Below the pieces are notes generated by a model. The model worked only from the letters and a program-made list of their open reading frames with translations, was not told where the DNA came from and made no database searches. From IMG/VR virus record IMGVR_UViG_3300026519_000614, positions 1 through 20,155 of that record: a stretch of DNA of 20,155 nt. One strand, 5' to 3'. Every line of letters begins with the position of its first letter. The stretch's first letter is position 1. The DNA is from a virus. Position numbers and translations under genes: made by a program. Below are positions 1,777 to 19,723 of the stretch, piece after piece.

Positions 1777-2508
1777 CTATTTGGTGGTTCGCTTCAAGAC
1801 AATCAGGCCAGCCGCATTCAAGCCATGGTTCCATGACCGATTTTGCCAGTATTGTCCCTGCATTTCGGTCGCGTCCTCGTTTAGGCTGAGCACCGCGGAC
1901 CCGTAGAACTTGGGTTGATCCGTTACAGCAAGGCGCTGAGTGTTGTCTTGCTTGTTGGTCTGTTCATAAACCCATGCAATCGATTTTTTTCCATTATCTG
2001 ACTTGAAAAATTCCACAGAGATCGTTTCGGAGCTCAGCAATGGTGTCTTATCGTTCGGCAAGAATGCCACGTCGGTTCGAAACCAAGTCTGATTGATTTT
2101 TATATCAAAGCTCGCTTCGAGCAGATCGGGTAACTTGTCGGCAAAAGGGTCAAATGTGATCTCGTCACTCGCGGCGGCGGTTCTTAGCCGTTCTACAATT
2201 GGCCAATTGGACTGGATCGTTACAACCCATTCGCCGTTCAAGTCGGGAAAGAAGCGTTTTTTGAGCCATGGCCCTACAAGAGGTAACTTCCAGAGTAGAC
2301 GCCAGCCTGGCACGACTACGAACAGCGCAATGCTTCCCCAAATCACGCCCGCAACAACTCTTGATGTCAGAAGGTTGGCAACCGTCGTTCCAACAACAGG
2401 CATGTTGGTCGCTAGCAAAGTCTCGATCCAGCCAACAGCAAGAGGTGAAGCCAAAGCCAAATAGACCGCCAAGGTAATCCAGAACGAAAGGGGGACAAAC
2501 TTTGCCAT
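1777..2508 (-). CDS. cap15: Cap15-like CBASS effector: two TM helices plus beta-barrel sensor domain
   Basis: This 243-residue protein has two N-terminal membrane helices (about residues 7-27 and 51-73), a short basic loop, and then a beta-rich soluble domain. That domain starts with FFPDLNGEW (residues 86-94), the signature I associate with the SMODS-associated 2TM beta-strand-rich effector family, now Cap15. Family knowledge: the barrel binds a cyclic nucleotide and the TM part then oligomerises and disrupts the inner membrane, killing the infected cell. The start at ATG 2508 (MAKFVPLSFW) is preferred over an upstream in-frame start at 2580 because AGAGG lies about 10 bases before it and it leaves a normal intergenic space. 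The gene is divergent from the synthase operon, not its first gene as is usual for CBASS effectors. Confidence 0.82.
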   Translation of the reverse strand: MAKFVPLSFWITLAVYLALASPLAVGWIETLLATNMPVVGTTVANLLTSRVVAGVIWGSIALFVVVPGWRLLWKLPLVGPWLKKRFFPDLNGEWVVTIQSNWPIVERLRTAAASDEITFDPFADKLPDLLEASFDIKINQTWFRTDVAFLPNDKTPLLSSETISVEFFKSDNGKKSIAWVYEQTNKQDNTQRLAVTDQPKFYGSAVLSLNEDATEMQGQYWQNRSWNHGLNAAGLIVLKRTTK

Positions 2509-2608
2509 AATGCTCAGCCTCTGGTATTGAAAATTCGACCCTATGCCCCCAAGTATATGGGTAGTCAACGACATCAGCACAAGATGAAGCCGAAGAAGGG
2601 ACAGTTTA
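2509..2608. promoter_or_regulatory. Divergent promoter region of cap15 and the CBASS operon
   Basis: The 100 bases between the two starts must drive both directions. On the minus strand TTGACT (2568-2563) is a plausible -35 box for cap15, with only a weak -10 about 17-18 bases on. On the plus strand TTGAAA (2527-2532) is followed by AT-rich AAGTATATGG. Neither -10 is strong. The synthase start at 2609 has AAGGGA about 8 bases upstream. Effector and synthase could be co-controlled from this shared region. Confidence 0.35.
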
Positions 2609-3850
2609 ATGCCGATTAACGCACATAAAGCCTTCGTGTCTCGTCCTTCGGGTTACAAGTTCGCGTTGAACCTTTCAGAGCAACAGGAACAGGTCCTGCG
2701 GACCGCTCGGGATGACATTCGCAACGAGATTTCCTCCCAGTTCGGAACATTTGCGGAGTCGTTAGGTGATCAGGTTCTGTTTGAAAATTGCGCACCTGTG
2801 TTCGCTCGGAGCTTCCACACTCCGAAGTTCAGGATGCAGGGGAGCTTCTCGTATCACACCTGCAATCAACCTGCTCATGTTCCGCCTCAAGAGATAGATT
2901 TGGATGATGGGTTGTTTATGCCTGTTTCGTATTTTGAAAAGGATGAAGGCAGGGCTCCTGTGATCCAAAGCGCTGCTTACTTTGCTATTGTTGAGCGCAT
3001 CCTAGCGCCCCTCTGCGCAAAGAAGGGCTGGAAACTCGTTACTGACAAGTCTTCATGTATTCGTGTCAAGATCGATGACGCGATGCATACTGACCTTGCG
3101 CTCTATTCCGTGCCGGAGACGGACTTCCAAAGCATCTCAAAGGACGCTCAAAAAAGAGGAATCGATTTTTCGGCCAACCTTCTGATGGAAGACACAGCAT
3201 ATCGTATGCTCTCCCAAGAAGAAATGATGCTGGCGCACCGTGAAGAGGGCTGGAAAAAATCTGATCCGCGAAAGCTTGAGGATTGGTTTATTGATGCCGT
3301 CAAAGAGTACGGTGAGCAAGTTAGGACGGTGAGTCGTTACCTCAAGGGCTGGAAGGATTTCCAGTGGAAACAAGGGAGGCTGGCCTCGATTGCACTTATG
3401 GCCGCTGTTGTAGCTGTGTTCCAAAAGGCATCGGCAGGAATCCCGAGTGATCGGGATGACATCGCGCTGTTGCGTGTTGCCGAGGGCTTACCTGACTTCC
3501 TCTCCAAGGAAATCCCAAACCCGGTTGTTGAGGGGGAACGATTAGATCAGGGGTGGACCCCCGAGGAACGGAATGACTTCGTAGCAAAGGCTAAGGTTCT
3601 TGCGGAGCGACTGCGCGATGCTCTTGTGCATTCGTCCGATCGGGTTCTCGCTGTCGAAGCGCTGCAGGAACAATTTGGGGGGCGCATACCCAAAGACTTG
3701 ACGCTCTATGTGCCCGATGCCGGGTTGGAAACTAAGCCGGACGAATTGGCAGCACCGGCGGCATTGACGCTTGGGATGATTGATAAGATAGAGGCAGAGC
3801 ACAAGGGTCTTGCCGCTGTGAACAAGCAGGGCGGTGGACGCTACGGGTAA
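2609..3850 (+). CDS. cdnA: CBASS cyclic-dinucleotide synthase, DncV-like (clade A CD-NTase)
   Basis: A 413-residue nucleotidyltransferase matching the Vibrio DncV pattern through most of its length. The GS motif is at residues 78-79 (GSFSYHT) and the metal-binding pair D97/D99 lies in EIDLDDG. The third acidic residue is D162 in HTDLALYSVP, and the helical region resembles DncV's KAWRDAQW (here KGWKDFQW). DncV makes 3',3'-cGAMP after phage infection; the product here is inferred, not shown. The C-terminus is GGGRYG, so it ends in glycine, which suits attachment by Cap2. The start is ATG 2609 with AAGGGA upstream. Its last codons overlap the start of cap2. Base composition is more AT-rich than the phage genes to the right. 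Confidence 0.92.
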   Translation: MPINAHKAFVSRPSGYKFALNLSEQQEQVLRTARDDIRNEISSQFGTFAESLGDQVLFENCAPVFARSFHTPKFRMQGSFSYHTCNQPAHVPPQEIDLDDGLFMPVSYFEKDEGRAPVIQSAAYFAIVERILAPLCAKKGWKLVTDKSSCIRVKIDDAMHTDLALYSVPETDFQSISKDAQKRGIDFSANLLMEDTAYRMLSQEEMMLAHREEGWKKSDPRKLEDWFIDAVKEYGEQVRTVSRYLKGWKDFQWKQGRLASIALMAAVVAVFQKASAGIPSDRDDIALLRVAEGLPDFLSKEIPNPVVEGERLDQGWTPEERNDFVAKAKVLAERLRDALVHSSDRVLAVEALQEQFGGRIPKDLTLYVPDAGLETKPDELAAPAALTLGMIDKIEAEHKGLAAVNKQGGGRYG

Positions 3851-5651
3851 TCTGCGCTTGACCGGACCGTCTGAACAAGCTGGCGCTGAGATGGATGAGA
3901 CGTCGCGGTGGGTGCTCGCTCAATATCCGAATGCGCGAGTTCTTTCGCGAACTGAGCTATCTCGATATAAAGCGGACAGCCCGCTCTGCGGATGGCTTGT
4001 GCCGTTCGAGCACGAAGGCGAGCGCTTTGATCTGCAAGTAGTGATCCCGCAGGATTTTCCGTGGATCAAGCCGCGTGTTTTCTGTCCTGAGAAATTTCAG
4101 TTCAAACAGTTGCCACACATCGAGAAAGACGGCGCATTTTGCCTATACCCTCCAGGAACAGAGCACGACCCACTGAACGCCAAGGGGTTGATACAGGATG
4201 CCATCAAAGAGGCGGCGCGATTGATCGTGGCTTCATTCGATGACGCATTTCTCGATGATTTTGGTACAGAATTCGACTCGTATTGGAGCAAAACTGAAGG
4301 CGGGAAAAATGTCATAAGCCTTCTGCCGCCTGGAGGCCCTTCACGGACAATTTCTATCTTGCGTAGTAAAGGTGACTACTATCTGGCGGACGATAACGAC
4401 GCGTTGGAAAGGTGGCTTCGCAATCGCTTTCCCGGAACGAAGTCGGGCTATGAATTCACGACCGCGACGCACGTGGTTCTTAAAAGACCAATTTTTCCCT
4501 CTGAATACCCGAAGTCTGGCGCAGCAGTATTGCTTATAATGAGGGAACTGGCGCCTGATGCCGTGGGTCTGCTAGCAAAAGCCGCTGAAAACGCAGATGA
4601 TAAGTTCACAGTATCTTTTGAGGGGCACACGGAGGACGGCCCAGTATTCTTTGCCGTGGAGGTGATGCCCCCGACGAAGCAGGGCATGCCAACCGGGCGC
4701 CGCCCAGACATGCTGCAAAAGGGTTTTCGTCCGGGAAAGGTGCCACCCCATATCCGATTGCAGAGACAATTAGGTGGGAACAGGGTCGAACACCATGACG
4801 TCATGCGGGCTGATGCATCGTGGGTTCATGGACGCGACACCCCCGGTGTTGCGCCACTATTCGATAAACGAGTTCTCATGATCGGTGTTGGCTCCTTGGG
4901 AAGCGAGGTCGCACAGCTTCTGGCCAAGACGGGCATTGGGTCGATCACTTTGGTTGATCCTGATCTTCTGGATTATTCGAACGTTGGCCGGCATGCGTTG
5001 GGAGTCTCAGAGGTCAGGACATTCAAAGCCAAGTCGCTCGCGGAAAGACTAACTAGAAACTTCCCACACATGCGCTTAGTCGAACACTTTTCTGAGGACT
5101 GGCTATCTCTTTTTCAGAAACGCCCTGAGGTATTCCAAGACGTTGATCTGATCGTGTCTACAGTTGGTAGTTGGTTGGCGGAAGGTAGGCTCAATCAAAT
5201 AGCTAGGAGTGAAGCCAATTTTCCACCTGTGCTCTATGGGTGGGCAGAGTCGTTTTCCGTTGCAGGGCATGCTGTATTGATCGGACCAGACGGTCCCTGT
5301 TTTGCGTGCGGCATGGATAATTTTGGGAGATCGCTCCGAACGGTTTGTGATTGGGATGCCGAGACGACTCGGAAGCAACCCCATTGTGGGGCGAGTTTTC
5401 AGCCCTACGGACCAATCGCGTTGTCGGGAGTTGCAGCATTAGTTGCGAAAACTGCAACGAAAGCACTGCTTGGGGAGGTTCGTCCGGGGACTGAGGCCGT
5501 ATATTGGGCCTCGCAGGAAGAGATTTTGGATCAAGGAGGACGCTTTAACGCAGAATTCCTAACTTGTTTTTCTTCTGTTCCAGAGTTTGGAGGATCAAAA
5601 TTGTTTGATTGGAGGCAGAAAGATGAATGTTCTTTTTGCGGCAAAGAATGA
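3834..5651 (+). CDS. cap2: Cap2: E2-E1 ubiquitin-ligase-like fusion of type II CBASS
   Basis: A 605-residue two-part enzyme. Residues ~25-150 form an E2/UBC-like fold with catalytic cysteine C103 in HIEKDGAFCLYPPG. Residues ~340-605 are a ThiF/E1 adenylation domain with nucleotide loop GVGSLGS (351-357) and VDPDLLDYSN after it. A likely E1 catalytic cysteine is C518 (QPHCGAS). CxxC pairs at C489/C492 and C599/C602 look like a structural zinc site. Family knowledge: Cap2 conjugates the C-terminus of the CD-NTase to target proteins, priming its activity. The start is a GTG at 3834, overlapping the synthase by 17 bases; ATG 3891 is an alternative and would still leave the E2 domain intact. The length agrees with known Cap2 proteins. 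Confidence 0.93.
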   Translation: MDATGNLRLTGPSEQAGAEMDETSRWVLAQYPNARVLSRTELSRYKADSPLCGWLVPFEHEGERFDLQVVIPQDFPWIKPRVFCPEKFQFKQLPHIEKDGAFCLYPPGTEHDPLNAKGLIQDAIKEAARLIVASFDDAFLDDFGTEFDSYWSKTEGGKNVISLLPPGGPSRTISILRSKGDYYLADDNDALERWLRNRFPGTKSGYEFTTATHVVLKRPIFPSEYPKSGAAVLLIMRELAPDAVGLLAKAAENADDKFTVSFEGHTEDGPVFFAVEVMPPTKQGMPTGRRPDMLQKGFRPGKVPPHIRLQRQLGGNRVEHHDVMRADASWVHGRDTPGVAPLFDKRVLMIGVGSLGSEVAQLLAKTGIGSITLVDPDLLDYSNVGRHALGVSEVRTFKAKSLAERLTRNFPHMRLVEHFSEDWLSLFQKRPEVFQDVDLIVSTVGSWLAEGRLNQIARSEANFPPVLYGWAESFSVAGHAVLIGPDGPCFACGMDNFGRSLRTVCDWDAETTRKQPHCGASFQPYGPIALSGVAALVAKTATKALLGEVRPGTEAVYWASQEEILDQGGRFNAEFLTCFSSVPEFGGSKLFDWRQKDECSFCGKE

Positions 5652-6148
5652 GTATCCACTACCCAATTGGCGAAAGCGGGCAATATTTGATATTTGAAAA
5701 AAGCGTTCTTGATCACTTTGACAAGTGGCGACAATTGAATCCGGGAATGCTTGAAGTCGGTGGACAGCTATTCGGTGCGGTAGAAGACGAATGTATAAAA
5801 CTCAAACAAGCGACTGGACCAAGGCGTTCTGACAGGCGAGGCCGCTTTTTCTTTATCGCGGACCGTCTCGCGGACCGTCGGGAAATCGGCTCATTGTACA
5901 AATCTGGGCTGCATTACTTCGGTGATTGGCACACCCACCCTCAAGCTATCCCCGAACCATCTGGAACCGACCTTGCATCAATGGCCGACCTTTTTGCTCG
6001 TTCAAAGCATGAGTTGAATGCATTCGTGATGGTAATTGTCGGGACGTCCCGGTTTCCCGATGGGTTGCATGTATCACTTCACCAGGCCAACGCATGGTCG
6101 AGGCTAATCCCGGGAAACACCGGTGACTTTATACGCCTCATAAAGTAA
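5648..6148 (+). CDS. cap3: Cap3: JAMM/MPN isopeptidase of type II CBASS
   Basis: A 166-residue JAB/MPN metalloprotease. The zinc site is complete: E36 in LEVGGQLFG, H95 and H97 in GDWHTHP, with S105 and D108 in EPSGTDLASM. In CBASS, Cap3 cleaves the CD-NTase off its conjugates and so opposes Cap2. The start ATG at 5648 overlaps the cap2 stop as ATGA; an in-frame start at 5627 exists but the coupled start is the usual arrangement. This is the last gene of the CBASS operon. Only about 38 bases separate its stop from the tRNA-end-like sequence, so it may lie right against the element boundary. Confidence 0.92.
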   Translation: MSIHYPIGESGQYLIFEKSVLDHFDKWRQLNPGMLEVGGQLFGAVEDECIKLKQATGPRRSDRRGRFFFIADRLADRREIGSLYKSGLHYFGDWHTHPQAIPEPSGTDLASMADLFARSKHELNAFVMVIVGTSRFPDGLHVSLHQANAWSRLIPGNTGDFIRLIK

Positions 6149-6251: not shown

Positions 6252-6487
6252 GCGTTTCGCGTCTGTGTCAACACTGTGTCAACAGATCCCTGACGCCGCG
6301 TGTCAACGGATTGCGCCGTGTTCGCACGGCTCCCCGCTTGTTCCGGCTTCAACCTCGAACCCGGAGGGCGTCGACACCAAGTCTGGGTGCAATCGCCATG
6401 TGCAGAAGCGCAGACCCCAATTGCCTTTCCTAAAGACGTGATCCGCGCGCCTTGGACCAATTACGTGGCTCCAGGCGGCACTATATA
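6252..6487. other. Intergenic stretch with short repeats and a hairpin, no gene seen
   Basis: GTGTCAAC occurs three times (6265-6272, 6276-6283, 6300-6307). The hairpin GCCGTG-TTCG-CACGGC lies at 6315-6330. An open frame runs from 6300 into the membrane-protein gene, but its N-terminal part looks non-coding and precedes the promoter. A GTCGAC site is at 6370-6375. The stretch might be leader or boundary DNA between two elements. Confidence 0.4.
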
Positions 6488-6516
6488 TTGTGGGTTGTGT
6501 GCGCGAGGTATACAAT
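6488..6516 (+). promoter_or_regulatory. Sigma-70-type promoter of the membrane protein/TIR operon
   Basis: TTGTGG (6488-6493) and TACAAT (6511-6516) are separated by 17 bases, near-consensus for -35 and -10. Transcription would begin around 6523, about 35 bases before the first start codon. This also argues against the longer upstream reading frame. Confidence 0.55.
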
Positions 6517-6557
6517 TACATCGATTCCCGGACGCAAGTGAGAGCTTTAGGCTAGCA

Positions 6558-6995
6558 ATGACAACCGAGAGAGATGATCTGCCGAAGCATTTGGAGTTTA
6601 TTCTGGACGTGGTCGAGCGCCACGCTCGTAATACGTTCCTCCTGAAAGGCTGGTCAGTGACATTGGTAGCCGCGGTCTTCCTGTTAGCCATTAGGGGAGC
6701 TGAGCCGACGCTTGCTATGGCCGCAGGATTTCTTCCCTCGCTAACATTCTGGGCTTTGGATGCCTATTATCTTCGTCAGGAACGTATGTACCGCGCCCTC
6801 TACAACCATGTGCGGAAGGCCGTACCAACCTCTGAAAGCCGCTTCAGCCTTGATGCCCGCCCATTCGTTTCAGAGGTTCCAGGATGGTTCCGAACTTTGG
6901 GTGCCACGCCGGTCTTTTGGTTCCATGCAGCTATCTTGGCAATCGTCGTTGTCGCGCTTGCTTTTTTCTCGCTGAGGCCTCCCGATGCCCCGTAA
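6558..6995 (+). CDS. Three-TM membrane protein paired with a TIR protein
   Basis: A 145-residue protein (MTTERDDLPKHLEFILDVVE...) with hydrophobic helices at about 32-47, 51-71 and 117-138. The pattern HLEFI..V..RHA.NTFLLKGW, then TFWALDAYYLRQERMYRALY, is one I recognise from an uncharacterised bacterial membrane family often seen beside TIR-like proteins; I know no assigned function. The start at ATG 6558 was chosen because a good promoter ends at 6516 and upstream codons in the frame look non-coding. The stop overlaps the start of the TIR gene by 11 bases. By analogy with other two-gene signalling defences it could be the membrane effector gated by a TIR product; this is inference. It lacks the beta-barrel of Cap15. 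Confidence 0.7.
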   Translation: MTTERDDLPKHLEFILDVVERHARNTFLLKGWSVTLVAAVFLLAIRGAEPTLAMAAGFLPSLTFWALDAYYLRQERMYRALYNHVRKAVPTSESRFSLDARPFVSEVPGWFRTLGATPVFWFHAAILAIVVVALAFFSLRPPDAP

Positions 6996-7767
6996 GGTGT
7001 TTTTCAGCTTTCATTACGATGACGTCACCCGCGCTAACGTGGTTCGCAACTCTGACAAGATCACGCGGCAATACACGAAAGCTGCCCGTTTCTATGACAA
7101 GAGCCTGTGGGAAGAGGCGAAGAAACAGGGGCCGCTTGCGATAAAGCGGATGATCAACGGAGGCCTCGAAGGCAGCTCCGTCACATGCGTTCTGATCGGT
7201 AGCGAGACATGGCGGCGCCCGTGGGTTCGCTACGAAATTATCAAGAGCCTTGCGCGAGGCAATGGTATCCTCGGTGTCCGGATCCACAATGTTGGGTTCA
7301 AACCTGGGCAACCGGTGAATGCTCTTTCCGGCCTGCTCTCGTCGTTGCCACCAGCAAATGCTCTTACTGGGTATGCTTCCCGCCAAGAGCCAACGCATGG
7401 AGGGCTACTTGGTTTGGCTGGTGGACGTCCGACATCACCGCCAAACTCTATCCTAGGTGCCCTACTGGCTGGCGAACGGGGCATAGCGCCCACGCCGCAA
7501 CCGGGCCCGAACCCGCTTCGCTATCTCGGTTATACACTCGACCGTCGCTACGGGATGGTGCGGTTTCACGAAGTCGGCCCCAATGGGCAGTGGCGCGAGT
7601 ATACGGAGGTGCAGGCTGTTCCGCTTCGCTCACTTCCATGGCTAGCGAGGCTGAAGGAGGCCGACAACCTCGAGAACCTGTTCCGCGTGTACGATTGGAA
7701 GCGAGACCATGGCTCGTTCTATTTCCCCACATGGATCGAGGACGCCGCTGCTCAGGTAGGACGTTAA
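6985..7767 (+). CDS. TIR-like (ThsB/DUF1863 family) protein with C-terminal extension
   Basis: Residues 1-105 match the MTH538/ThsB TIR-like fold: KVFFSFHYDD at the start, DKSLWEEAKKQGPLAIKRMI, then VTCVLIGSETW followed by RPWVRYEI. E84 is the candidate catalytic glutamate. Thoeris ThsB proteins sense phage and use NAD to make a cyclic ADP-ribose-type signal; the product here is unknown. Residues ~108-170 are an unusual Pro/Gly/Leu-rich, low-complexity stretch, followed by a compact C-terminal region (YLGYTLDRRYGMVRF...FYFPTWIEDA). It is translated with the membrane-protein gene (11-base overlap, TGAGG upstream). No ThsA (SIR2 or macro-domain protein) is nearby, so a classic Thoeris pair is not present. 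Its stop shares bases with the stop of the opposing DUF2190 gene. Confidence 0.85.
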   Translation: MPRKVFFSFHYDDVTRANVVRNSDKITRQYTKAARFYDKSLWEEAKKQGPLAIKRMINGGLEGSSVTCVLIGSETWRRPWVRYEIIKSLARGNGILGVRIHNVGFKPGQPVNALSGLLSSLPPANALTGYASRQEPTHGGLLGLAGGRPTSPPNSILGALLAGERGIAPTPQPGPNPLRYLGYTLDRRYGMVRFHEVGPNGQWREYTEVQAVPLRSLPWLARLKEADNLENLFRVYDWKRDHGSFYFPTWIEDAAAQVGR

Positions 7768-11617: not shown

Positions 11618-13195
11618 CTATGCGACTCGGCGGTCGAACAGGTCAGATTGCGTAAGAGAGAGAAGATTCAGGCCGAGGCGCTCGGCCAACGCCTCTGCTG
11701 GGAAGCCTCGAAGTTCTTTCGGTTCGAGTTTGTGCAGTCCACCACCATAGACACGGCCATGACCAAGCAATTCGTCGGCATCGATCCCATTCAGGAACTC
11801 CCATGCTACCCGTATGGCTTCGGCATTCTTTTCCACAGCCCGGTCCAGAATTGGCTTGGGGTACAGTAGCAGGTAGGTGTTGCAAGCGGTTGCGTCAGAG
11901 TGGTTCAAGATGAACCGGAAGGGCTTCGCTCCGTTTCTACTCCGCCCCATGTAAGTGCAAATGATGGGCGCAGCGGGTCGTTTCTCTTGCGAGTACCATG
12001 GCTTCCGCCCCCGGCACAAATAGCGCTCGGCTACCGCCTTTTCACCCGTCTTGCCGGATTCGAGATACGCATGGAGCGCTGGGTAGCGTTCTGCAATCTC
12101 TTCTTCGGTAAGGCGCGTATCAAGAAGAAACAGCTGTTTGGGCAGTAGAGGATGGCCAGCCTCATCGGCTTTGATCTCGTCTCCAAGGATATAGCGTGAC
12201 CCCGGCAAGACGGGGCGAAAACATTCCATTGGTAGGCCGCGTTCTTCGATTTGACCACGGTCCATAATGAAGAAGCTGTTATCGCCAGTGGCAAGGCCGC
12301 GCTTGATCTCGAAGAGATCGCCCAGAGTGATTTCGCTTTTTCGCGTGGCGCTATCGGCCTGCGGATAACGCGTCCATTTTGTCTCAAGAGCCAGTTCGGT
12401 GGCTGGTACCTTGCGTGCGAGTGACGGGGATGCGAGCGTGCCGCCATAGGTGAAGAGAACGCTGTGATTTTTCGGCGGCCGACATTTCTTAATCCACACA
12501 ACCGAGGACGAGACCAGCGCATCATCAAATTGCACATCATTAGGGTCGTAGCGGTGGATTCGGAGAAGCGTTACCTTTTCAAGAAGGTAGCGCTTTAGCA
12601 TGGTCCCGTAATTTACGCCCATGAACTCACTCGGGATGAGCCAGCCTGCGATGCCGTTTTCGGACATGAAGGGATGTGCAAGCCCCATGAAATAGCAGTA
12701 AAGACCAGAGAGTCCGTTCATCTTGACGCCGCAAGCCTCTTCTGTGCGGCGCTGGATGGTAGCCTTTCTCACAGCATCCATGTGATGATGCCGGACGTAC
12801 GGTGGATTGCAGATTAAAAGGTTTGCTTCTCGCCCTACAGGCGACGCCGCTGCAAAGTCTTCGAGGTGGATTTCAAGTTCCGTGTCTTGCCAGAGAGCAC
12901 GGGCAGGCTCACCATAGTGTGGATCGATCTCAAACCCGGCTGCGCTTTCGATCCGTTCACTGGGTACAATCGCTAACAGAGCGGAATAGAATGAGCCGGT
13001 CCCGATAGCGGGATCGAGAAACCGGATTGGAAGGTCCTCAGGCAGCAGGCTAATCCCATAACCAATTATTTCTCGAGCAAGTTCCGTCGGGGTTGCAAAT
13101 TGGCCCATGCGGTTCCGGTCTTCCGACGTTTTCTCACCGTCCAGTGCCGCTTGCAGGGCAAGCCGTTCAGCCTCGAGTTGGTTGATATCGGTCAT
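11618..13195 (-). CDS. N6-adenine DNA methyltransferase of a XamI-like R-M system
   Basis: A 525-residue class I methyltransferase. The AdoMet motif I is DPAIGTGSF (61-69) after a FATPTELAREI entry helix. The catalytic motif IV is NPPY (130-133), which marks exocyclic-amino (adenine) methylation. The C-terminal half carries the target-recognition region. Start ATG 13195 overlaps the nuclease stop as ATGA, so the pair is co-translated. The partner is XamI-like; XamI recognises GTCGAC, so the predicted product is methylated adenine in that site. The length and layout resemble single-chain type II methylases of the SalI/Eco57I-like group. A phage orphan methylase is unlikely given the linked nuclease. 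Confidence 0.87.
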   Translation of the reverse strand: MTDINQLEAERLALQAALDGEKTSEDRNRMGQFATPTELAREIIGYGISLLPEDLPIRFLDPAIGTGSFYSALLAIVPSERIESAAGFEIDPHYGEPARALWQDTELEIHLEDFAAASPVGREANLLICNPPYVRHHHMDAVRKATIQRRTEEACGVKMNGLSGLYCYFMGLAHPFMSENGIAGWLIPSEFMGVNYGTMLKRYLLEKVTLLRIHRYDPNDVQFDDALVSSSVVWIKKCRPPKNHSVLFTYGGTLASPSLARKVPATELALETKWTRYPQADSATRKSEITLGDLFEIKRGLATGDNSFFIMDRGQIEERGLPMECFRPVLPGSRYILGDEIKADEAGHPLLPKQLFLLDTRLTEEEIAERYPALHAYLESGKTGEKAVAERYLCRGRKPWYSQEKRPAAPIICTYMGRSRNGAKPFRFILNHSDATACNTYLLLYPKPILDRAVEKNAEAIRVAWEFLNGIDADELLGHGRVYGGGLHKLEPKELRGFPAEALAERLGLNLLSLTQSDLFDRRVA

Positions 13196-14151
13196 AGGCC
13201 AAAGTCCTGAAGATCGTCGATCCTGTGTTCCCACACCCAATCAATCCCTTCTGCGGCCTCATAGCCGAGATACCCACTATCAAAGTAGCCACACAGAAAA
13301 AGTATGAACTCAATGTCCTTGCCGTAGGTGTGGCGTAGCTGATTGATTTTCTGTGCTTCTTCCTTCCGGCGTTTGTTGGTGTTGGTAAAATCCCCTGCCG
13401 ACTTGGCCTCGACCAGCAATGGGAATTCTCCAGGCTTGGCGGTGCGGCGCATGATGACGGCGTCAACGGGGATGTTGACGGTGTTCGAGCTATTGTCACC
13501 TCCGACCGGAACATTCATGCGGAACGAATAAGTTCCAGCCGGCATGGTGCGGAAATCGCTGTGCCCATCTGCGATCTTGCGGTAGCCGCGAGCCTCTAGC
13601 CACTTGCCAATATATGCTAGTTGGCGTTGTTCCTGCGCATTTCGAATGATGGGATTTGCGACGCTGCCACACAGCCTATCCGCTACAATGGTGGCGGCAC
13701 GATGGATTTCCGCCTCTGTGGCTGGTTCTTCGCGCCCGATCCAGACGAAAATATCTGGGTCGGCCATGCGTTCGATGATGTCCGCGATTTTTCGAAGCTC
13801 GGCATCAAGCGCTGCCCCTTTCAGCCGGACCGGGAGTTTCTTCTCCTTCTCCATCCGCTTGACCATGGCCGGAGGCACATCGGCCAGACCGATGAGCCGG
13901 TCGACAGCCAGCGGAGGGCAGGTTGACATTCTCAGAGTCGGTAGAACTTCCGGCCAGCGCTTCATTACCTCGGGCTTGATATTGGTGAGGTTTGCCGTGG
14001 ACTTGAGAGTCGCCTCTACATCCCTTGTCGCCTCTTTTCGTGTATCGCGGAATGCTTTAGGCGCAAATTTCATGAACCACTGGTTATACATATCAACGGA
14101 TTTGGCGATATCCTTCTTCCAGTATTGGGGCTTGTCGAGATTTACAGGCAT
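13192..14151 (-). CDS. XamI-family type II restriction endonuclease
   Basis: A 319-residue protein starting MPVNLDKPQYWKKDIAKSVD that fits the XamI family closely (WFMKFAPKAFRDTR, then LRMSTCPPLAVDRLIGLA). A PD-(D/E)xK active site is visible as D230 (IPVDAVI), E248 and K250 (LLVEAK). XamI cuts GTCGAC; specificity here is inherited from that resemblance. ATG 14151 is preferred over the in-frame start at 14220 because family similarity begins there and the start is coupled (TAATG) to the stop of the small ORF upstream. It lies between terL and portal in the phage head operon and looks more AT-rich than its neighbours, so it is a probable insertion. Confidence 0.88.
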   Translation of the reverse strand: MPVNLDKPQYWKKDIAKSVDMYNQWFMKFAPKAFRDTRKEATRDVEATLKSTANLTNIKPEVMKRWPEVLPTLRMSTCPPLAVDRLIGLADVPPAMVKRMEKEKKLPVRLKGAALDAELRKIADIIERMADPDIFVWIGREEPATEAEIHRAATIVADRLCGSVANPIIRNAQEQRQLAYIGKWLEARGYRKIADGHSDFRTMPAGTYSFRMNVPVGGDNSSNTVNIPVDAVIMRRTAKPGEFPLLVEAKSAGDFTNTNKRRKEEAQKINQLRHTYGKDIEFILFLCGYFDSGYLGYEAAEGIDWVWEHRIDDLQDFGL

Positions 14152-14309
14152 TATGATTTCTTCGTTTTCTTGTAGAGTTCCCACATTTCTTCGAACAACT
14201 TGTGCAAGGAGAGGCCTCACCCGCCTGCTTCCTGCTTAACCGCAGCCCCCAATTCTGACGGCGCCGAGAAACCGACGATCTTGCGCAGTGTAGAGTGGCT
14301 GTCTGGCAT
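14151..14309 (-). pseudogene. Small ORF before the restriction gene, interrupted by an in-frame TGA
   Basis: From ATG 14309 (GGAGGAA ribosome site 9-10 bases upstream) the frame encodes MPDSHSTLRKIVGFSAPSEL... for 30 residues and meets TGA at 14217-14219. The same frame then continues with the protein-like tail HKLFEEMWELYKKTKKS and a TAA that overlaps the restriction-gene ATG. Without the TGA it would be a 52-residue protein, translationally coupled to the endonuclease. Either the gene is broken, or two tiny ORFs are used, or the TGA is read through. A controller or leader role is possible from position; I do not recognise a family. Confidence 0.5.
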
Positions 14310-14322
14310 GACTGTTTCCTCC

Positions 14323-14357
14323 ATCGTGCGTATCGTGCGTATCGTGCGTATCGTGCG
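14323..14357. repeat. 9-bp tandem repeat ATCGTGCGT, almost four copies
   Basis: Units begin at 14323, 14332, 14341 and 14350, the last with 8 of 9 bases. They lie just upstream of the ribosome binding site of the small ORF, in the 5' region of the restriction operon. Copy number could change by slippage and alter the leader length by 9 bases at a time. Confidence 0.85.
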
Positions 14358-14413: not shown

Positions 14414-16225
14414 TCATGTCGTGAGCCACCGGGAGCGGATTACTGCCTTCGCCTCGTTTTCTGGCACCGCGGCTTGCTTCACCACCCTCTCCACCTCCTC
14501 ATTCAACCGCAACCCCATGCTGATCAGCCCGTGCAACGCAGCGTGGGCATAGACGAAGGTATCCAGCGCCTCGTTGCGCTCGCCGTCGCGCTTGGGCTGC
14601 CAGGAGCGGACGGGGCGGCCGCGTGTAAAGCGGGTGACGACGCGCTCGGCGGTCAGCTGGCGGAAATACTCGGCGTCCAGGCGGCGGGGGAAGTGGATCG
14701 CACCGGGGCCGGGTTCGGTGAGGCGCAGGCGGGCGTAGACGGCATCCTTCACCGCGTCCACACCGACGATGAAGAGCGGGATCTTGCCCTTGTTTCTGCG
14801 TGTGGGGCGGCGCGGCCAGACCGGGATGCCGGGGCCGCCGCGGCCCTTGATCGCCCAGATGCGGCGGGCAAGGCGGGTGCGGCAGAACTCGTAGGCCATC
14901 TTGGTGTGATGACCGCCGGTGTCGATGGCGGCCGCGCGCACGGGCAACTCGATCCCGGCCGGGTGCGGGAAGCTGGTTTGCAACACCATGTCGAGGTCGG
15001 ACCAGAGGCGCGGGCCTGATGGGTCGCCCCAGAGTACGCGGTAGTCGATTACCCACACTTCCTCGTCGCGGCCCCAGCCGAGGATCTGCACCTCGATCCG
15101 GTCGCCCTGCACATCGACGCCGGCGGTGAGCACGGCGACGCAGTCCGGCAGCGCATCGCCCCAATCTTCGCGCCGGGCCATCAGGGGGTCGGCGGGGACG
15201 GTATCGCCGGCCTGGTCTTCCCAGGATTCGCCCAGCTTGGTGTTGACCCAGACCTGAAGCCGGGCGGGATCCTTGCGGATGCGGCCGTGCTCGGTGGCGA
15301 TTTCGGCCCAGGTTTCCCACGGGGAGTAGAGCGCCGAGAGGTGAAAGCCGGCGGTCCGGCCGTCGCCCCTGGCGGTTGCACGCCATTCCCCGCCGGCCAG
15401 CAGGCGCGGCTTGTCGTGCTCGTGGTGGATGCCGCCGCAGGCCTCGCAGACCAGATGGGCTTCATCGCGCCGCCCTTCCGGCCAGCGGATGCGCGCCCAG
15501 GTGATCGGTGCCATATCGCCGCAATGCAGGCAGGGAACGTGAAAGAAACGTTTGTCGCTATCCTCGAAGGCCGCCTCGATACGGGAATGCCCCTTCAGCG
15601 TGGGCGTCGAAACCATGTAGATCTTGCGCCGGCCCTGGAAGGTGGCGGTGCGCTGAATGGCCAGATCGACCGGATCGCCCTCGCCATCGGCATCGCCGGG
15701 ATAGCCGTCCACCTCGTCGAGAAAGAGATAACGCACCGGCGTCGAGCGCAGCCCGACGGCCGAGTTGGCGCCGGTCATCACCAGCTGGCCGCCGGGGAAG
15801 GATTTCCGGAACAGGCTGTTGCCGGCATCGCGGGAGCGGGGCGAGGCGACCAGCTCACGCAGCGCGGGCGTGGCCTCGATCAGCGGGTCGATGCGCACCG
15901 TCGTGTTGCGGCGCACCATGTCGAGCGAAGGCATCACCAGCATCGCGATGCCGGGCGCGTTCTGGATGATGTAGCCAAGCCAGTTCAGCCCTGCTTCGGA
16001 GCCGCCGGTCTGCGCCCCTTTCATCAGCACGACGCGTTCATAGGGGCTGGAGGTGGACAGCGCATCCATCACCTCGCGCAGATAGGGCGTGCGATCCGTG
16101 CGCCAGCGCCCGGGCTCGGCCGAGGTGGGCGGCAGGATGCGGTGCCGGTCGGCCCAGTCCGAAACCGGGATCGGTGGTTCGGGGCGGATGCCGCGCCGCC
16201 AGGCAAGGTCGATCTCAGGCACCAT
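14414..16225 (-). CDS. terL: Terminase large subunit (lambda gpA family)
   Basis: A 603-residue packaging motor. The ATPase part has a variant Walker A KGAQTGGSE (69-77) and Walker B YLFLDEVD (166-173). A zinc-finger-like insert has CLHCGD and CEACGG pairs. The nuclease part shows acidic motifs GVDVQGDR and IDTGGHHT. gpA-type enzymes usually cut at cos sites. ATG 16225 (MVPEIDLAWRRG) is chosen over a start 16 codons upstream because GGAGAA precedes it and it overlaps terS by 11 bases. Normally gpW or portal would follow; here the R-M genes intervene. Confidence 0.93.
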   Translation of the reverse strand: MVPEIDLAWRRGIRPEPPIPVSDWADRHRILPPTSAEPGRWRTDRTPYLREVMDALSTSSPYERVVLMKGAQTGGSEAGLNWLGYIIQNAPGIAMLVMPSLDMVRRNTTVRIDPLIEATPALRELVASPRSRDAGNSLFRKSFPGGQLVMTGANSAVGLRSTPVRYLFLDEVDGYPGDADGEGDPVDLAIQRTATFQGRRKIYMVSTPTLKGHSRIEAAFEDSDKRFFHVPCLHCGDMAPITWARIRWPEGRRDEAHLVCEACGGIHHEHDKPRLLAGGEWRATARGDGRTAGFHLSALYSPWETWAEIATEHGRIRKDPARLQVWVNTKLGESWEDQAGDTVPADPLMARREDWGDALPDCVAVLTAGVDVQGDRIEVQILGWGRDEEVWVIDYRVLWGDPSGPRLWSDLDMVLQTSFPHPAGIELPVRAAAIDTGGHHTKMAYEFCRTRLARRIWAIKGRGGPGIPVWPRRPTRRNKGKIPLFIVGVDAVKDAVYARLRLTEPGPGAIHFPRRLDAEYFRQLTAERVVTRFTRGRPVRSWQPKRDGERNEALDTFVYAHAALHGLISMGLRLNEEVERVVKQAAVPENEAKAVIRSRWLTT

Positions 16226-16724
16226 TGCCCAGTTCTCCAAGCGGCAGGTCGGCCAGATGTTCCAGATGCTCACGCATCATGCGGTCGAGCGCGGCGAAGG
16301 TGGCCCGCGGATCGGCGCCGAGTTCGGCGGCCAGCAGCGGCGCCGTGCGCTGAACCCACGCCAGATGCGCGTCGCGTTCGGCACGGGCGCGCGCATACAC
16401 CGTGCGCTGGGCTTCCTCGGCGTCGATCAGCTTGCCCTGTTCGCGCTCATAGGCCAGGCGGGCGCGCTGGACCTTGACGATTTCGTGCAGCCGCTTGGCC
16501 TCGGCCAGCGTGGCCGTGCGGGTGGAGGCCGACGGGGCACCGCCCTTGTGGCGCCGGGCAGGGTCGAGGTTTGCCTCGATCCAGGCGAGCCCTTTCGCCA
16601 CGTCGATGGTGCCGTCCGGGCGCACGGGGAGTCCCTCGGCAATCAGCTGTGATATCCGCCCCTTGGTCAGACCGACGCGCGCGGCGAAGGCGGTCTTGGT
16701 CTCGGCGCTGTCGAGTTTAGTCAT
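16215..16724 (-). CDS. terS: Terminase small subunit / Nu1-like packaging protein
   Basis: A 169-residue protein starting MTKLDSAETKTAFAARVGLT, with an N-terminal winged HTH (AARVGLTKGRISQLIAEGLP) like lambda Nu1. A long, charged coiled-coil-like helix follows (about residues 65-125) and a helical tail. Nu1 proteins bind the packaging start site and recruit the large subunit. AGGGGG lies about 5 bases before ATG 16724; the longer frame to 16850 is unlikely. It overlaps terL, and the origin-like region lies just upstream. Confidence 0.82.
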   Translation of the reverse strand: MTKLDSAETKTAFAARVGLTKGRISQLIAEGLPVRPDGTIDVAKGLAWIEANLDPARRHKGGAPSASTRTATLAEAKRLHEIVKVQRARLAYEREQGKLIDAEEAQRTVYARARAERDAHLAWVQRTAPLLAAELGADPRATFAALDRMMREHLEHLADLPLGELGNGA

Positions 16725-16831
16725 TTTCGCCCCCTGATGCTGGCGACGCGATGCGCCAAGCCCCCCCACATACGAATGGGCGCAAAAGGAACCGTCCGAT
16801 GGCCCGAGGTCCGCCCATCCTCCGGTTAACG

Positions 16832-17118
16832 ACGGTTCTGAAAGTTTCACGATGCGGATCGGTTTTTGGCATCGGCTGACGAATTGACTGGTGGGGATGG
16901 TGGAGTTTGGTGGGGTGTTTCCCCCTGTTCATCGTTATTGTCACGGATTGCAGGGCGTTGGGGTAATGCGCTTTCATCGATGTGTTCTTCAGCTCTGACA
17001 GTTTTTCGGACAAACATAGATTACGGTCGGAATATCCCCACCAAAGCCACCAAACCCACCAGACGGATCGGGAGTCAACTTCACGCATCAGTAAGCTTCC
17101 GGAAAGTTTCAGAACCGT
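16832..17118. repeat. Origin-like inverted repeat with two sets of three iterons
   Basis: Left set: TGGTGG at 16889, 16898 and 16908. Right set, inverted: CCACCA at 17038, 17047 and 17056. The surrounding blocks 16888-16915 and 17036-17062 are nearly perfect reverse complements. A second pair, 17 bases each with one mismatch (16832-16848 and 17102-17118), lies exactly 40 bases outside each set. About 120 less GC-rich bases separate the arms. The right arm overlaps the primase gene's 3' end. SaPI-type origins have the same plan, iterons on both sides of an AT-richer core beside the replication gene, so a replication origin is the best reading. A packaging (cos) signal is the alternative, since terS follows. 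Confidence 0.6.
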
Positions 17119-19723
17119 TGTGGATCGCCGTTGCGGCCGTTTCCACCCTTTCGAGCTGCCAGCGCGCGCGCCCTGCCGACATGCCTGCCGCAACCAGGCG
17201 ATGCCCACCGACGACGCGGTTCTGGTGCGCGCTGATCCATTTTCCGAGCCTTGCGCCATTGATGTTCCCTGTCGTGCCCGCAACCCGCAGCAACGCCTCG
17301 CGGAACTCGGGATGGACGAATTCTGAACCGCCATGGAATTGCGCGCGTTGTTCTGTCGCACGATCGATGACCTGGCGGACACTGACCCGATCCATGCCGA
17401 TGACTTCGCGCCATTGTTCGACAACGGCGATCAATGCCTCAAGCTTGGGATCGGCCCCGCGCAACTCCTCCATCGTGTCGCAGGGGGCTGCCTCGTCGAG
17501 CCAGATCAGCGCATCGCGCACCCAGCGCGACCAGTCGTTGAACGAGCCCAACGGTGGGCGCTGCTGTGGTCGGCCGGCAATGTGATAGGCTCGCAGCATG
17601 GTAAGCGCCGCGGCGACGTAATTCCCGCGCTGGGCCTTCACCATAGCGATGGGGTCACGGTCGAAGGCGCGCAGCTCCGGCCGTTCGACCCCGGCATCGA
17701 GCGTGGCCCGAAGTGCGCGGCGGGTCATGTCTCCCTCGAAAGTCAGATTGTTGCCTGTGGCAAAGATGGTGGCGTTGCTCGGCACCTCGGCATTCACCGA
17801 CTTGCCAAGGATGCGGACCTTGAGGCTTGTTTGGGTCATGGTTTGGCAGAGGAGCTCGCCGCTCAGCGGTTCTTCGCAGTTATCGATGGCGATCAGCACA
17901 TCGCCTGCAATCAGTGCAGCGCCAAGCCGCTTTTCCATTTCCTCCTCGGACTTTCCCTGTGCGATCACCGGCGCCGGTCGGACGGTGGCGATCAGGCTTG
18001 CGAGATCGACCAGCATGGACTTGCCGGTGCCGGCCGTCGGTGCGTTGAAGCCGTGCAGCGGGGCTGTTGGCAGCGAGCGGCGCACCAGCGCCGTCAGGAT
18101 GGCCGACAGTGCCACGGCCCGATCCGCTGCCGTGACAAAGGGAAAGGTCGAGATCAGGTCCTTGAGATAGCCCAGCGCCCGCAACGCCATTGCGCGGTCG
18201 GGATCGCGCGGCATGGTCGGAAACCGGGTATTCTGGGGATCGAACAGCAGCCCCGTGCGTGCGTCATAGCCGGGCATGTCGAGGATCGAGCCGTCCAGGC
18301 GAAGCGTCGGCGTGTTGATGATCCCCGTGAGCACGGGCAGGCGCCATTGACCCTCGCGCGACAGATATGTTTCGGCAATATGACGCGGGCAGTCGATGCG
18401 CACCCAGTCCTTGGCCCGGGCATCGAAGCGTTCCCAATTGGCAGCCTTGGTGAAGGCTTCAGTCAAATGGTGCCGATCAACGGTGATTAGGCGAGGGGCA
18501 TCTACCTGTCGGTCGCCCGAGATTGCGACTGGCACCATGGCCGGGCGCACAACCATGCTGCCGCGCTGGTAGAAGCCGAGACCGGCACCAATAAGCGCCG
18601 ATTCCGCCCGATCAACGGTGTCGGGGAGGTGGCCTGCGAAAATCTTGATCGTCGGCCGCCCCGAATTGTCGGTCGCATCGGGGGGCCTGGGCGAGACGTT
18701 TCCGCGAGCGGTGCACACCCGACGCGGCCGTTCGGCCCGCCACCCGTTTTGCTGCGCCAGCCAGAATAACGTGCCAACAGTCACGCTGTGGACATTGGCG
18801 AAACTGTCCCACTTCTCGGCGGTGCAGGCCGGATCATTCTTTCCTGCTTGCGCTGACCATGCTTCCCACAACTCGCGCCCGTCGGCGCCCAGCGCCGAAT
18901 AGAGCGCATGCCCGACCTTGATCCATTCGTCGTAGGGCAGGTCGTCATTCGGGATATGCGCAACGGCTTCCTCGACCAGCTCTCGCGATGGGGTCTGGTT
19001 ACGCCTGAGCCCGGCAGCCTTGCGGCCCGCGCGTTCGATCTCGCGGCGATCAACACTGCTCTGTCCCCCAACCTTGCGCAGATATTTCTCTGCTGCGGCG
19101 ATCAAGTCTTGGCACCGCTCCTTGCTGACGGCCGGCAGTTCACGCAGTGGCACGTCAAGCGGTGAGCTTTCAGGCCAGTGATAGGGGGCTTTGGTGTCGG
19201 GGTGGATGCCGAAAGCCACGAATTGTTGCCCGGTGGCCAGAATCTCGACGCGCGCCACCGTGCCGTCGAGCATGTGAAACTCGGGAGTTTGGATCTTGTC
19301 GAAAGGCGCTTCGGTGCGGAAAGCCAGCAAGATCTTCGGTGCGCGGCCAATCCGTACGGCGGGTGTCCTGCCGAGTATTTCGGTGGCAATGCTGGTCAGG
19401 CGGTGGGCGTGATCCCGATCCAGCACGTCGATGTCGATGCCGATCAGCGTCCCGCATAGCAAACCTGTATTGGTGCAGTTGCGCTGGGCCTTCGACCAGC
19501 GGGCAATCTCTGTGTCGTCAGCGCGGGCGCAGACGGTCTCCCAGCCCTTCATCATCGGCCGCTTGCCTGCCGCCTTCATCGAGACATGCGCCCCGACCAC
19601 CGGGACAGGGAGATAGCCGTTGCGGTGGAGCTTCAGGCGCAGTCTGGTCAGATCATCCGGCCGCATGGGGGTGGCCGCCTCGGCGTCAGCCTTGGCGCCG
19701 CTGCTACGCATGGCGCTATCCAT
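17081..19723 (-). CDS. Primase-polymerase/helicase replication protein
   Basis: An 880-residue multidomain protein. Residues ~25-215 are a bifunctional primase-polymerase (AEP) domain with the metal-binding IDID at 96-99. A PriCT-2-like region spans ~250-320 (IPNDDLPYDEWIKVGHALYSALG). The C-terminal part is a P-loop ATPase with Walker A APTAGTGKS (561-569), Walker B VLIAIDN (609-615), sensor ATIFATGNN (651-659) and arginines R668/R669. Such proteins prime and unwind at the origin of phages, plasmids and satellites. ATG 19723 was kept; M5 and M20 are alternatives before the domain begins. It is downstream of the AlpA-like gene on the same strand, and its 3' end overlaps the origin-like repeat. 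Confidence 0.88.
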   Translation of the reverse strand: MDSAMRSSGAKADAEAATPMRPDDLTRLRLKLHRNGYLPVPVVGAHVSMKAAGKRPMMKGWETVCARADDTEIARWSKAQRNCTNTGLLCGTLIGIDIDVLDRDHAHRLTSIATEILGRTPAVRIGRAPKILLAFRTEAPFDKIQTPEFHMLDGTVARVEILATGQQFVAFGIHPDTKAPYHWPESSPLDVPLRELPAVSKERCQDLIAAAEKYLRKVGGQSSVDRREIERAGRKAAGLRRNQTPSRELVEEAVAHIPNDDLPYDEWIKVGHALYSALGADGRELWEAWSAQAGKNDPACTAEKWDSFANVHSVTVGTLFWLAQQNGWRAERPRRVCTARGNVSPRPPDATDNSGRPTIKIFAGHLPDTVDRAESALIGAGLGFYQRGSMVVRPAMVPVAISGDRQVDAPRLITVDRHHLTEAFTKAANWERFDARAKDWVRIDCPRHIAETYLSREGQWRLPVLTGIINTPTLRLDGSILDMPGYDARTGLLFDPQNTRFPTMPRDPDRAMALRALGYLKDLISTFPFVTAADRAVALSAILTALVRRSLPTAPLHGFNAPTAGTGKSMLVDLASLIATVRPAPVIAQGKSEEEMEKRLGAALIAGDVLIAIDNCEEPLSGELLCQTMTQTSLKVRILGKSVNAEVPSNATIFATGNNLTFEGDMTRRALRATLDAGVERPELRAFDRDPIAMVKAQRGNYVAAALTMLRAYHIAGRPQQRPPLGSFNDWSRWVRDALIWLDEAAPCDTMEELRGADPKLEALIAVVEQWREVIGMDRVSVRQVIDRATEQRAQFHGGSEFVHPEFREALLRVAGTTGNINGARLGKWISAHQNRVVGGHRLVAAGMSAGRARWQLERVETAATAIHNGSETFRKLTDA

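What the first reader, a model, noticed from the sequence alone, without database searches (positions are those of the whole stretch)
16832..17118. Symmetric inverted iteron array between primase-helicase and terS
Two sets of three GGTGG-type repeats at 9-10 bp spacing face each other across about 120 bases, and a second 17-bp inverted pair lies exactly 40 bases outside each set. Such symmetry is hard to explain by coding. The layout matches satellite origins with iterons on both sides of a melting region beside the initiator gene. The G-rich arms could also fold into G-quadruplexes. The outer right block encodes part of the primase C-terminus, so the left arm may have arisen by inverted duplication.
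Basis: partly seen in the sequence, partly recalled or inferred. Interest (0 to 1): 0.7.

Follow-up and report, generated by a model that had tools for sequence, protein, structure and literature searches.

The report
Mirrored-iteron replication origin of satellite
The short stretch after the DNA-copying gene of this phage satellite is very probably where copying of its DNA starts: two facing sets of three short repeats, a layout that its relatives keep even when the repeat sequence changes, and that is swapped together with the copying gene.

Summary
Three GGTGG repeats (16890, 16899, 16909) face three CCACC (17038, 17047, 17056); a 17-bp outer pair (16/17) shares the same centre, 16975.0. 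No mirrored triple occurs in 150 shuffles.

Facing arms lie directly 3' of the primase-helicase gene in 70 of 72 relatives, against about 1% of random windows. The iteron sequence changes between lineages, but both arms change together.

In elements with the same terS/terL, two other replication genes can occupy the slot, each with its own mirrored array (23 of 24). So the array follows the initiator, not the terminase. Plasmids without terS next door have it too.

Best explanation: a PICI-type replication origin read by the primase-helicase's C-terminal winged helix (binding inferred).

Origins of this layout are known from PICIs (PMC6092414), so this is a new member of a known kind. New, as far as I could check: the layout also occurs in plasmids, including mapped origins of pWTY27 and archaeal pRN1; rep and origin swap as a cassette; iteron class tracks the winged helix. 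Nothing was tested at the bench.

The parts
16832..16848 (+). outer box, left (ACGGTTCTGAAAGTTTC)
   Evidence: 16/17 inverted match to 17102-17118, centre 16975.0; changes on both sides together in relatives
16889..16914 (+). iteron array distal to the primase gene: three GGTGG at 16890, 16899, 16909
   Evidence: conserved in relatives
16914..17037 (.). centre, presumed melting region
   Evidence: higher A+T than the downstream flank in 71 of 71 loci, mean 45% against 36%; melting itself is inferred
16937..16943 (+). inner box, left (ATTGTCA, degenerate copy of ACTGTCA)
   Evidence: inner inverted pair seen in alignments of relatives
16996..17002 (+). inner box, right (TGACAGT)
17037..17061 (-). 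iteron array proximal to the primase gene: three CCACC at 17038, 17047, 17056
17102..17118 (-). outer box, right; also codes for the disordered primase tail
17081..19723 (-). initiator: Prim-Pol / PriCT-2 primase with D5-like helicase and C-terminal winged helix (880 aa)
   Evidence: Pfam PF09250, PF08707; helicase fold
17153..17449 (-). C-terminal winged-helix domain, residues 759-857, proposed iteron reader
   Evidence: model pLDDT about 85; iteron class tracks this domain
16751..16773 (-). neighbouring conserved element next to terS, candidate packaging site; not part of the origin
   Evidence: consensus in 71 viral stretches, always beside terS; the window copy differs from the pattern at 2 bases
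16215..16724 (-). terS, shared neighbour used as the fixed point of the swap comparison
   Evidence: phrog_57 terminase small subunit; start chosen at the ATG at 16724

Best explanation
This is the replication origin of a phage satellite that encodes its own capsid genes. The primase-helicase encoded immediately next to it reads the GGTGG iterons with its C-terminal winged-helix domain. Each set of three iterons seats one helicase ring; because the sets face each other, two rings load head to head and open the centre between them, so that forks leave in both directions, primed by the Prim-Pol domain. Outer and inner boxes are accessory parts of the same mirror-image origin. Shown here by sequence: the layout, its conservation, arm-to-arm matching, linkage to the type of initiator and not to the terminase, and iteron class tracking the winged helix. 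Inferred: binding, ring loading, melting, bidirectional replication.
For: Facing arms in 70/72 primase relatives against 1.0% of 1,616 random windows at >=19/24. Both arms change together between lineages. Rep type and array type swap together beside a constant terS: 42/42, 18/19, 5/5. Plasmid homologues without terS keep the layout. Preferred lag 9 within arms, 0.64 against 0.34. Helicase fold like D5 and SaPI5 Rep, Z 11.3 and 10.4. All 5 residues that strictly separate the iteron classes lie in the winged helix. Precedents: PICI rep-ori drives plasmid replication (PMC6092414); pWTY27 RepA footprints its mirrored repeat and replicates bidirectionally (PMC3583192); pRN1 origin 3' of its Prim-Pol gene (PMC4234260).
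Against: No replication or binding data for this family. Winged helix and origin are adjacent in DNA, so their co-variation can be linkage. Arm matching can be kept by copying between inverted repeats (L049) without any protein. The window's own arms are less perfect than those of relatives. The A+T rise in the centre is modest. Five of 16 distant relatives show no clear array. pRN1 protein showed no specific binding in vitro (PMC4234260).
Confidence: 0.87

Rival explanations
1. It is an origin, but the initiator recognises a cruciform or hairpin formed by the two arms, not the individual iterons.
For: Single strands of the window region fold better than shuffles (z -5.3) and those of L085 much better (z -11.7), as any long inverted repeat would. 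In pRN1, a stem mutation was tolerated only when symmetry was restored (PMC4234260).
Against: 14 of 19 loci with exact triples in both arms keep unequal spacing, 9-9 against 9-10, which breaks a continuous stem. Direct repetition at lag 9 within arms is not needed for a stem.
Confidence: 0.15
2. It is a packaging (cos/pac) site for the terminase encoded next door.
For: It lies just upstream of terS.
Against: The array is replaced whenever the replication gene is replaced while terS, terL and a separate conserved element at terS stay. Plasmids without terS beside the gene have the array.
Confidence: 0.03
3. It is a transcriptional control region: terminator, promoter or operator between primase and terS.
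For: Position between two genes of one orientation; one sigma-70-like match against 0.2 expected, on the other strand.
Against: Terminator-like count near shuffle level (1 against 0.8) and no Rfam match. The layout persists with quite different downstream genes in plasmids. An added regulatory role is not excluded.
Confidence: 0.05
4. The G-rich arms act as G-quadruplexes.
For: Several arms have two to four runs of three or more Gs.
Against: Arms of L043 and of pRN1, pRN2 and pHEN7 have none, yet the layout is the same.
Confidence: 0.03

Closest known systems
PICI / SaPI replication origins (EcCICFT073, SaPIbov1; PMC6092414, PMC7581432)
   Same: Immediately 3' of the rep gene; [quoted passage not shown] satellite context; helicase fold like SaPI5 Rep.
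   Different: Found here in Rhodobacterales capsid-encoding elements with a Prim-Pol/PriCT-2 initiator, with extra outer and inner boxes. [quoted passage not shown] here plasmids have it as well.
pWTY27 repAB/iteron origin of Streptomyces (PMC3583192)
   Same: Homologous helicase part, mirrored GTGGGAA repeats 3' of repA; RepA footprint and bidirectional replication were shown there.
   Different: Primase on a separate gene; more repeats; a plasmid, not a satellite.
pRN1 origin of Sulfolobus (PMC4234260, PMC3869888)
   Same: Origin 3' of a Prim-Pol plus D5-like helicase plus winged-helix gene; facing arms around an A+T-rich centre. Each arm repeats TGTCCA 9 bp apart.
   Different: Two units per arm, perfect 21-bp arms and 58-nt loop; described by its authors as a stem-loop without iterons.
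Phage P4 alpha protein and ori/crr
   Same: Fused primase-helicase whose winged helix reads origin repeats (PMC4234260).
   Different: Bacterial Toprim-type primase; origin with iterons in two distant places (own knowledge).

Membership tests
PICI-type replication origin | located immediately 3' of the replication initiator gene | tested here: met
   arrays at 16889-17061, gene end at 17081; same place in relatives
[quoted passage not shown]
   3+3 facing iterons; centre richer in A+T than flank in 71/71 loci, though modestly
PICI-type replication origin | cognate Rep binds the iterons | not testable with these tools
   indirect only: class-separating residues lie in the winged helix
PICI-type replication origin | rep plus ori drives autonomous replication | not testable with these tools
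   needs a plasmid assay
capsid-forming PICI (cfPICI) | own head genes: terS, terL, portal, capsid, adaptor | tested here: met
   PHROG and Pfam matches
capsid-forming PICI (cfPICI) | no tail genes of its own | tested here: inconclusive
   no tail gene among the larger ORFs examined, but not every ORF was searched and the record may be a fragment
capsid-forming PICI (cfPICI) | integrase | tested here: inconclusive
   ORF 3-971 runs off the record and matches no family; an excisionase-like domain is present at 1077-1430
capsid-forming PICI (cfPICI) | induced and tailed by a helper phage | not testable with these tools
   no helper known
pRN1-type stem-loop origin | inverted repeat 3' of a Prim-Pol/D5-like helicase gene | tested here: met
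pRN1-type stem-loop origin | perfect stem with short loop (21 bp, 58 nt) | tested here: not met
   window arms match 18/24 without gaps, centre 124 nt
P4-type alpha replicon | Toprim primase domain in the initiator | tested here: not met
   the window initiator has Prim-Pol and PriCT-2, no Toprim match

The most novel reading that the evidence does not exclude
Facing arrays of iterons about 9 bp apart are a general origin design for replicons driven by D5-type self-loading helicases with a C-terminal winged helix, from archaeal pRN plasmids through actinobacterial and proteobacterial plasmids to phage satellites. The stem-loop origin of pRN1 would then be a mirrored two-iteron array, and helicase plus origin would move as one exchangeable cassette. 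[quoted passage not shown]
Probability: 0.5. Interest if true: 0.7.

Novelty: new member of a known kind. Interest (0 to 1): 0.5.

Why it matters
It gives a likely replication origin for a widespread group of capsid-encoding satellites of Rhodobacterales that can carry defence systems. Natural swapping of initiator and origin within a fixed packaging backbone makes origin specificity testable by simple domain swaps. It offers a concrete hypothesis for how the pRN1 origin is recognised, which its authors could not find, and a simple rule for finding origins of cryptic plasmids: look for facing iterons about 9 bp apart just after the primase-helicase gene.

Tried and rejected
G-quadruplex as the common feature: some arms lack G-runs. 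RNA element: no Rfam match. Terminator or promoter: near shuffle expectation. Packaging site: the array swaps with the rep gene while the terminase stays. Half-array as a search handle: common and unspecific. Held copies of the SaPIbov1 origin papers (PMC3804134, PMC1964853) and phage record NC_005809 are missing, so the iteron period of SaPI/PICI origins was not measured. No PDB sequence match to the initiator, so a fold search was used. In one search the pattern for GGTGG/GGTTAGG is loose and also matches GGGTCCGGGT arrays; the table was read with that in mind. For the C-terminal domain alone the best matches are winged-helix-like proteins at Z 5-7, too weak to name a relative. No clear array in Legionella, TPWB-08, vir525, RcXuper or Cereibacter relatives.

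Full report
Setting. The window is a linear 20,155-bp virus record. On the minus strand it encodes a Prim-Pol/PriCT-2 primase-helicase (17081-19723), terS (16215-16724), terL, portal, a major head protein with protease, and head adaptor and decoration genes. Relatives of the primase sit mostly in Rhodobacterales and other alphaproteobacteria. The element looks like a capsid-encoding satellite; completeness and absence of tail genes were not proven.

Three GGTGG at 16890/16899/16909 face three CCACC at 17038/17047/17056, and an outer pair matching 16/17 has exactly the same centre, 16975.0. Shuffles never gave a mirrored triple (0 in 150) or such an outer pair (0 in 20).

Conservation. For 72 loci I took the end of the primase gene plus about 400 bp. 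In 70 the best facing 24-nt arms exceed the 99% point of shuffles. Against real DNA, 97% of these regions score at least 19/24, compared with 1.0% of 1,616 random windows from the same loci; the window itself scores 18. The sequence of the arms is not fixed. Most relatives have GGTGGGTTT units; one group has GGTTAGG/GGGTGGG in both arms; L014 has GGGTTAGG in both; L031 and kin carry the order GGTGG, GGTTG, GGAGG mirrored in both; L042 and L043 have GCAGGATTT in both. The outer box also changes on both sides together (GGTTCTGAA/TTCAGAACC against AGTTTCGGAT/ATCCGAAACT), but it is missing in the more distant loci. An inner pair ACTGTCA...TGACAGT lies in the centre of many loci. The centre is richer in A+T than the downstream flank in 71 of 71 loci (mean 45% against 36%).

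What the array belongs to. A conserved element just upstream of terS (GTATGYGGGGNNGCNCAGCGCAT) was found in 71 viral stretches, always next to terS. In 26 of them with enough upstream DNA the window's primase is absent, and in the same slot there is a different mirrored array. Over 67 non-identical loci: Prim-Pol-type C-terminus with GGTGG/GGTTAGG arrays 42/42; Toprim plus D5-like C-terminus with GTGTTGAGATGACGCA arrays 18/19 (the exception, L102, has a one-base variant); Toprim plus VapE C-terminus with GGGTCCGGGT arrays 5/5; one short locus had no C-terminus to classify. The last two initiators share a 57%-identical N-terminal primase but have unrelated C-terminal parts, so the array follows the C-terminal helicase/DNA-binding part. 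Plasmid homologues without terS directly beside the gene keep the layout: M. tardum pMt-1, M. nodulans pMNOD06, Streptomyces and Psychrobacter plasmids; an Azospirillum element has it too. In all, 11 of 16 distant loci inspected have clear facing arms (20/24 or better; window lengths differ somewhat).

Periodicity. Over 23 representative arm pairs, chosen by arm-to-arm match and not by periodicity, identity within arms is 0.64 at lag 9 against 0.34 (sd 0.015) in shuffles; other lags stay at or below 0.40. About half the set comes from one protein family, so the pairs are not independent.

Known origins re-read. The pRN1 origin, mapped by deletion to the region 3' of its Prim-Pol/helicase gene (PMC4234260, PMC3869888), has arms that repeat TGTCCA 9 bp apart. 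pHEN7 repeats TGTCAC and pRN2 repeats GGAC, each 9 bp apart. The authors described a stem-loop without iterons. The RepA of pWTY27, homologous to the helicase part of the window's protein, binds a 105-bp mirrored repeat by footprint, and the plasmid replicates bidirectionally (PMC3583192). [quoted passage not shown] the plasmid cases here suggest otherwise.

Initiator. The model (mean pLDDT 71) puts residues 363-762 with poxvirus D5/E5 helicases (Z about 11) and the SaPI5 primase-helicase (Z 10.4). Residues 759-859, folded alone (pLDDT 85), form a winged-helix arrangement with weak matches to winged-helix proteins (Z 5-7). Residues 862-880, encoded inside the origin's outer arm, are disordered. 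L013 and L014, whose iterons are of the GGTTAGG class, have winged helices closest to that class (0.89 against 0.65; 0.73 against 0.63); their Prim-Pol domains are closer to the GGTGG class, and the helicase part is closer to it in L013 and even in L014. The only five residues of the protein that strictly separate the classes (770, 773, 804, 848, 851) are all in this domain. Because the domain is encoded next to the origin, linkage could give the same pattern.

Mechanism. Shown by sequence: layout, conservation, arm matching and initiator linkage. Inferred: winged-helix binding of single iterons, one helicase ring per set, head-to-head loading, melting of the centre and bidirectional forks. 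Arm matching may also be kept by copying between the arms (L049 lost its third iteron alike in both), so it is not proof of recognition. A cruciform remains possible, but 14 of 19 suitable loci keep unequal spacing in the two arms.

Verdict. A PICI-type origin, a new member of a known kind, in a little-described satellite group. The unification with plasmid and archaeal origins is the most interesting open claim and needs bench tests.

Noticed in passing
window 16751-16773 (- strand) and 71 viral stretches: Conserved element GTATGYGGGGNNGCNCAGCGCAT just upstream of terS, with short inverted ends (ATGCG/CGCAT); candidate cos/packaging site that stays with terS when the replication cassette is swapped.
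   Followed up: partly
L136, L123, L147 (type 2); L162, L164, L103 (type 3): Same satellite backbone with other initiators: Toprim plus D5-like with GTGTTGAGATGACGCA arrays, and Toprim plus VapE with GGGTCCGGGT arrays. The two share the N-terminal primase only.
   Followed up: partly
window 1777-6148: Type II CBASS-like cargo: Cap15-like two-membrane-helix effector, cGAS-like cyclase, E1-E2 and JAB proteins.
   Followed up: no
window 6300-7767: Pair matching PADLOC candidate system PDC-M50A/B, the second protein also ThsB/TIR-like.
   Followed up: no
window 11618-14220: XamI-type restriction enzyme and an Eco57I-like methyltransferase inserted between portal and terL genes, the cargo slot of relatives as well.
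   Followed up: no
window 14323-14352: A perfect 9-bp tandem repeat (ATCGTGCGT-like units, over three copies) near the start of the restriction-modification cargo; possible phase-variation tract or coding repeat.
   Followed up: no
L086 5084-5183; L097 61-157; L098 about 4687-4783: The stem of the proven pRN1 origin, and the corresponding arms of pRN2 and pHEN7, contain short direct repeats 9 bp apart with a different sequence in each plasmid.
   Followed up: partly
L049, after the primase gene: The third iteron is altered alike in both arms (GGTGGCGATCA / GGTGGAGATCA), a sign of copying between the arms.
   Followed up: no
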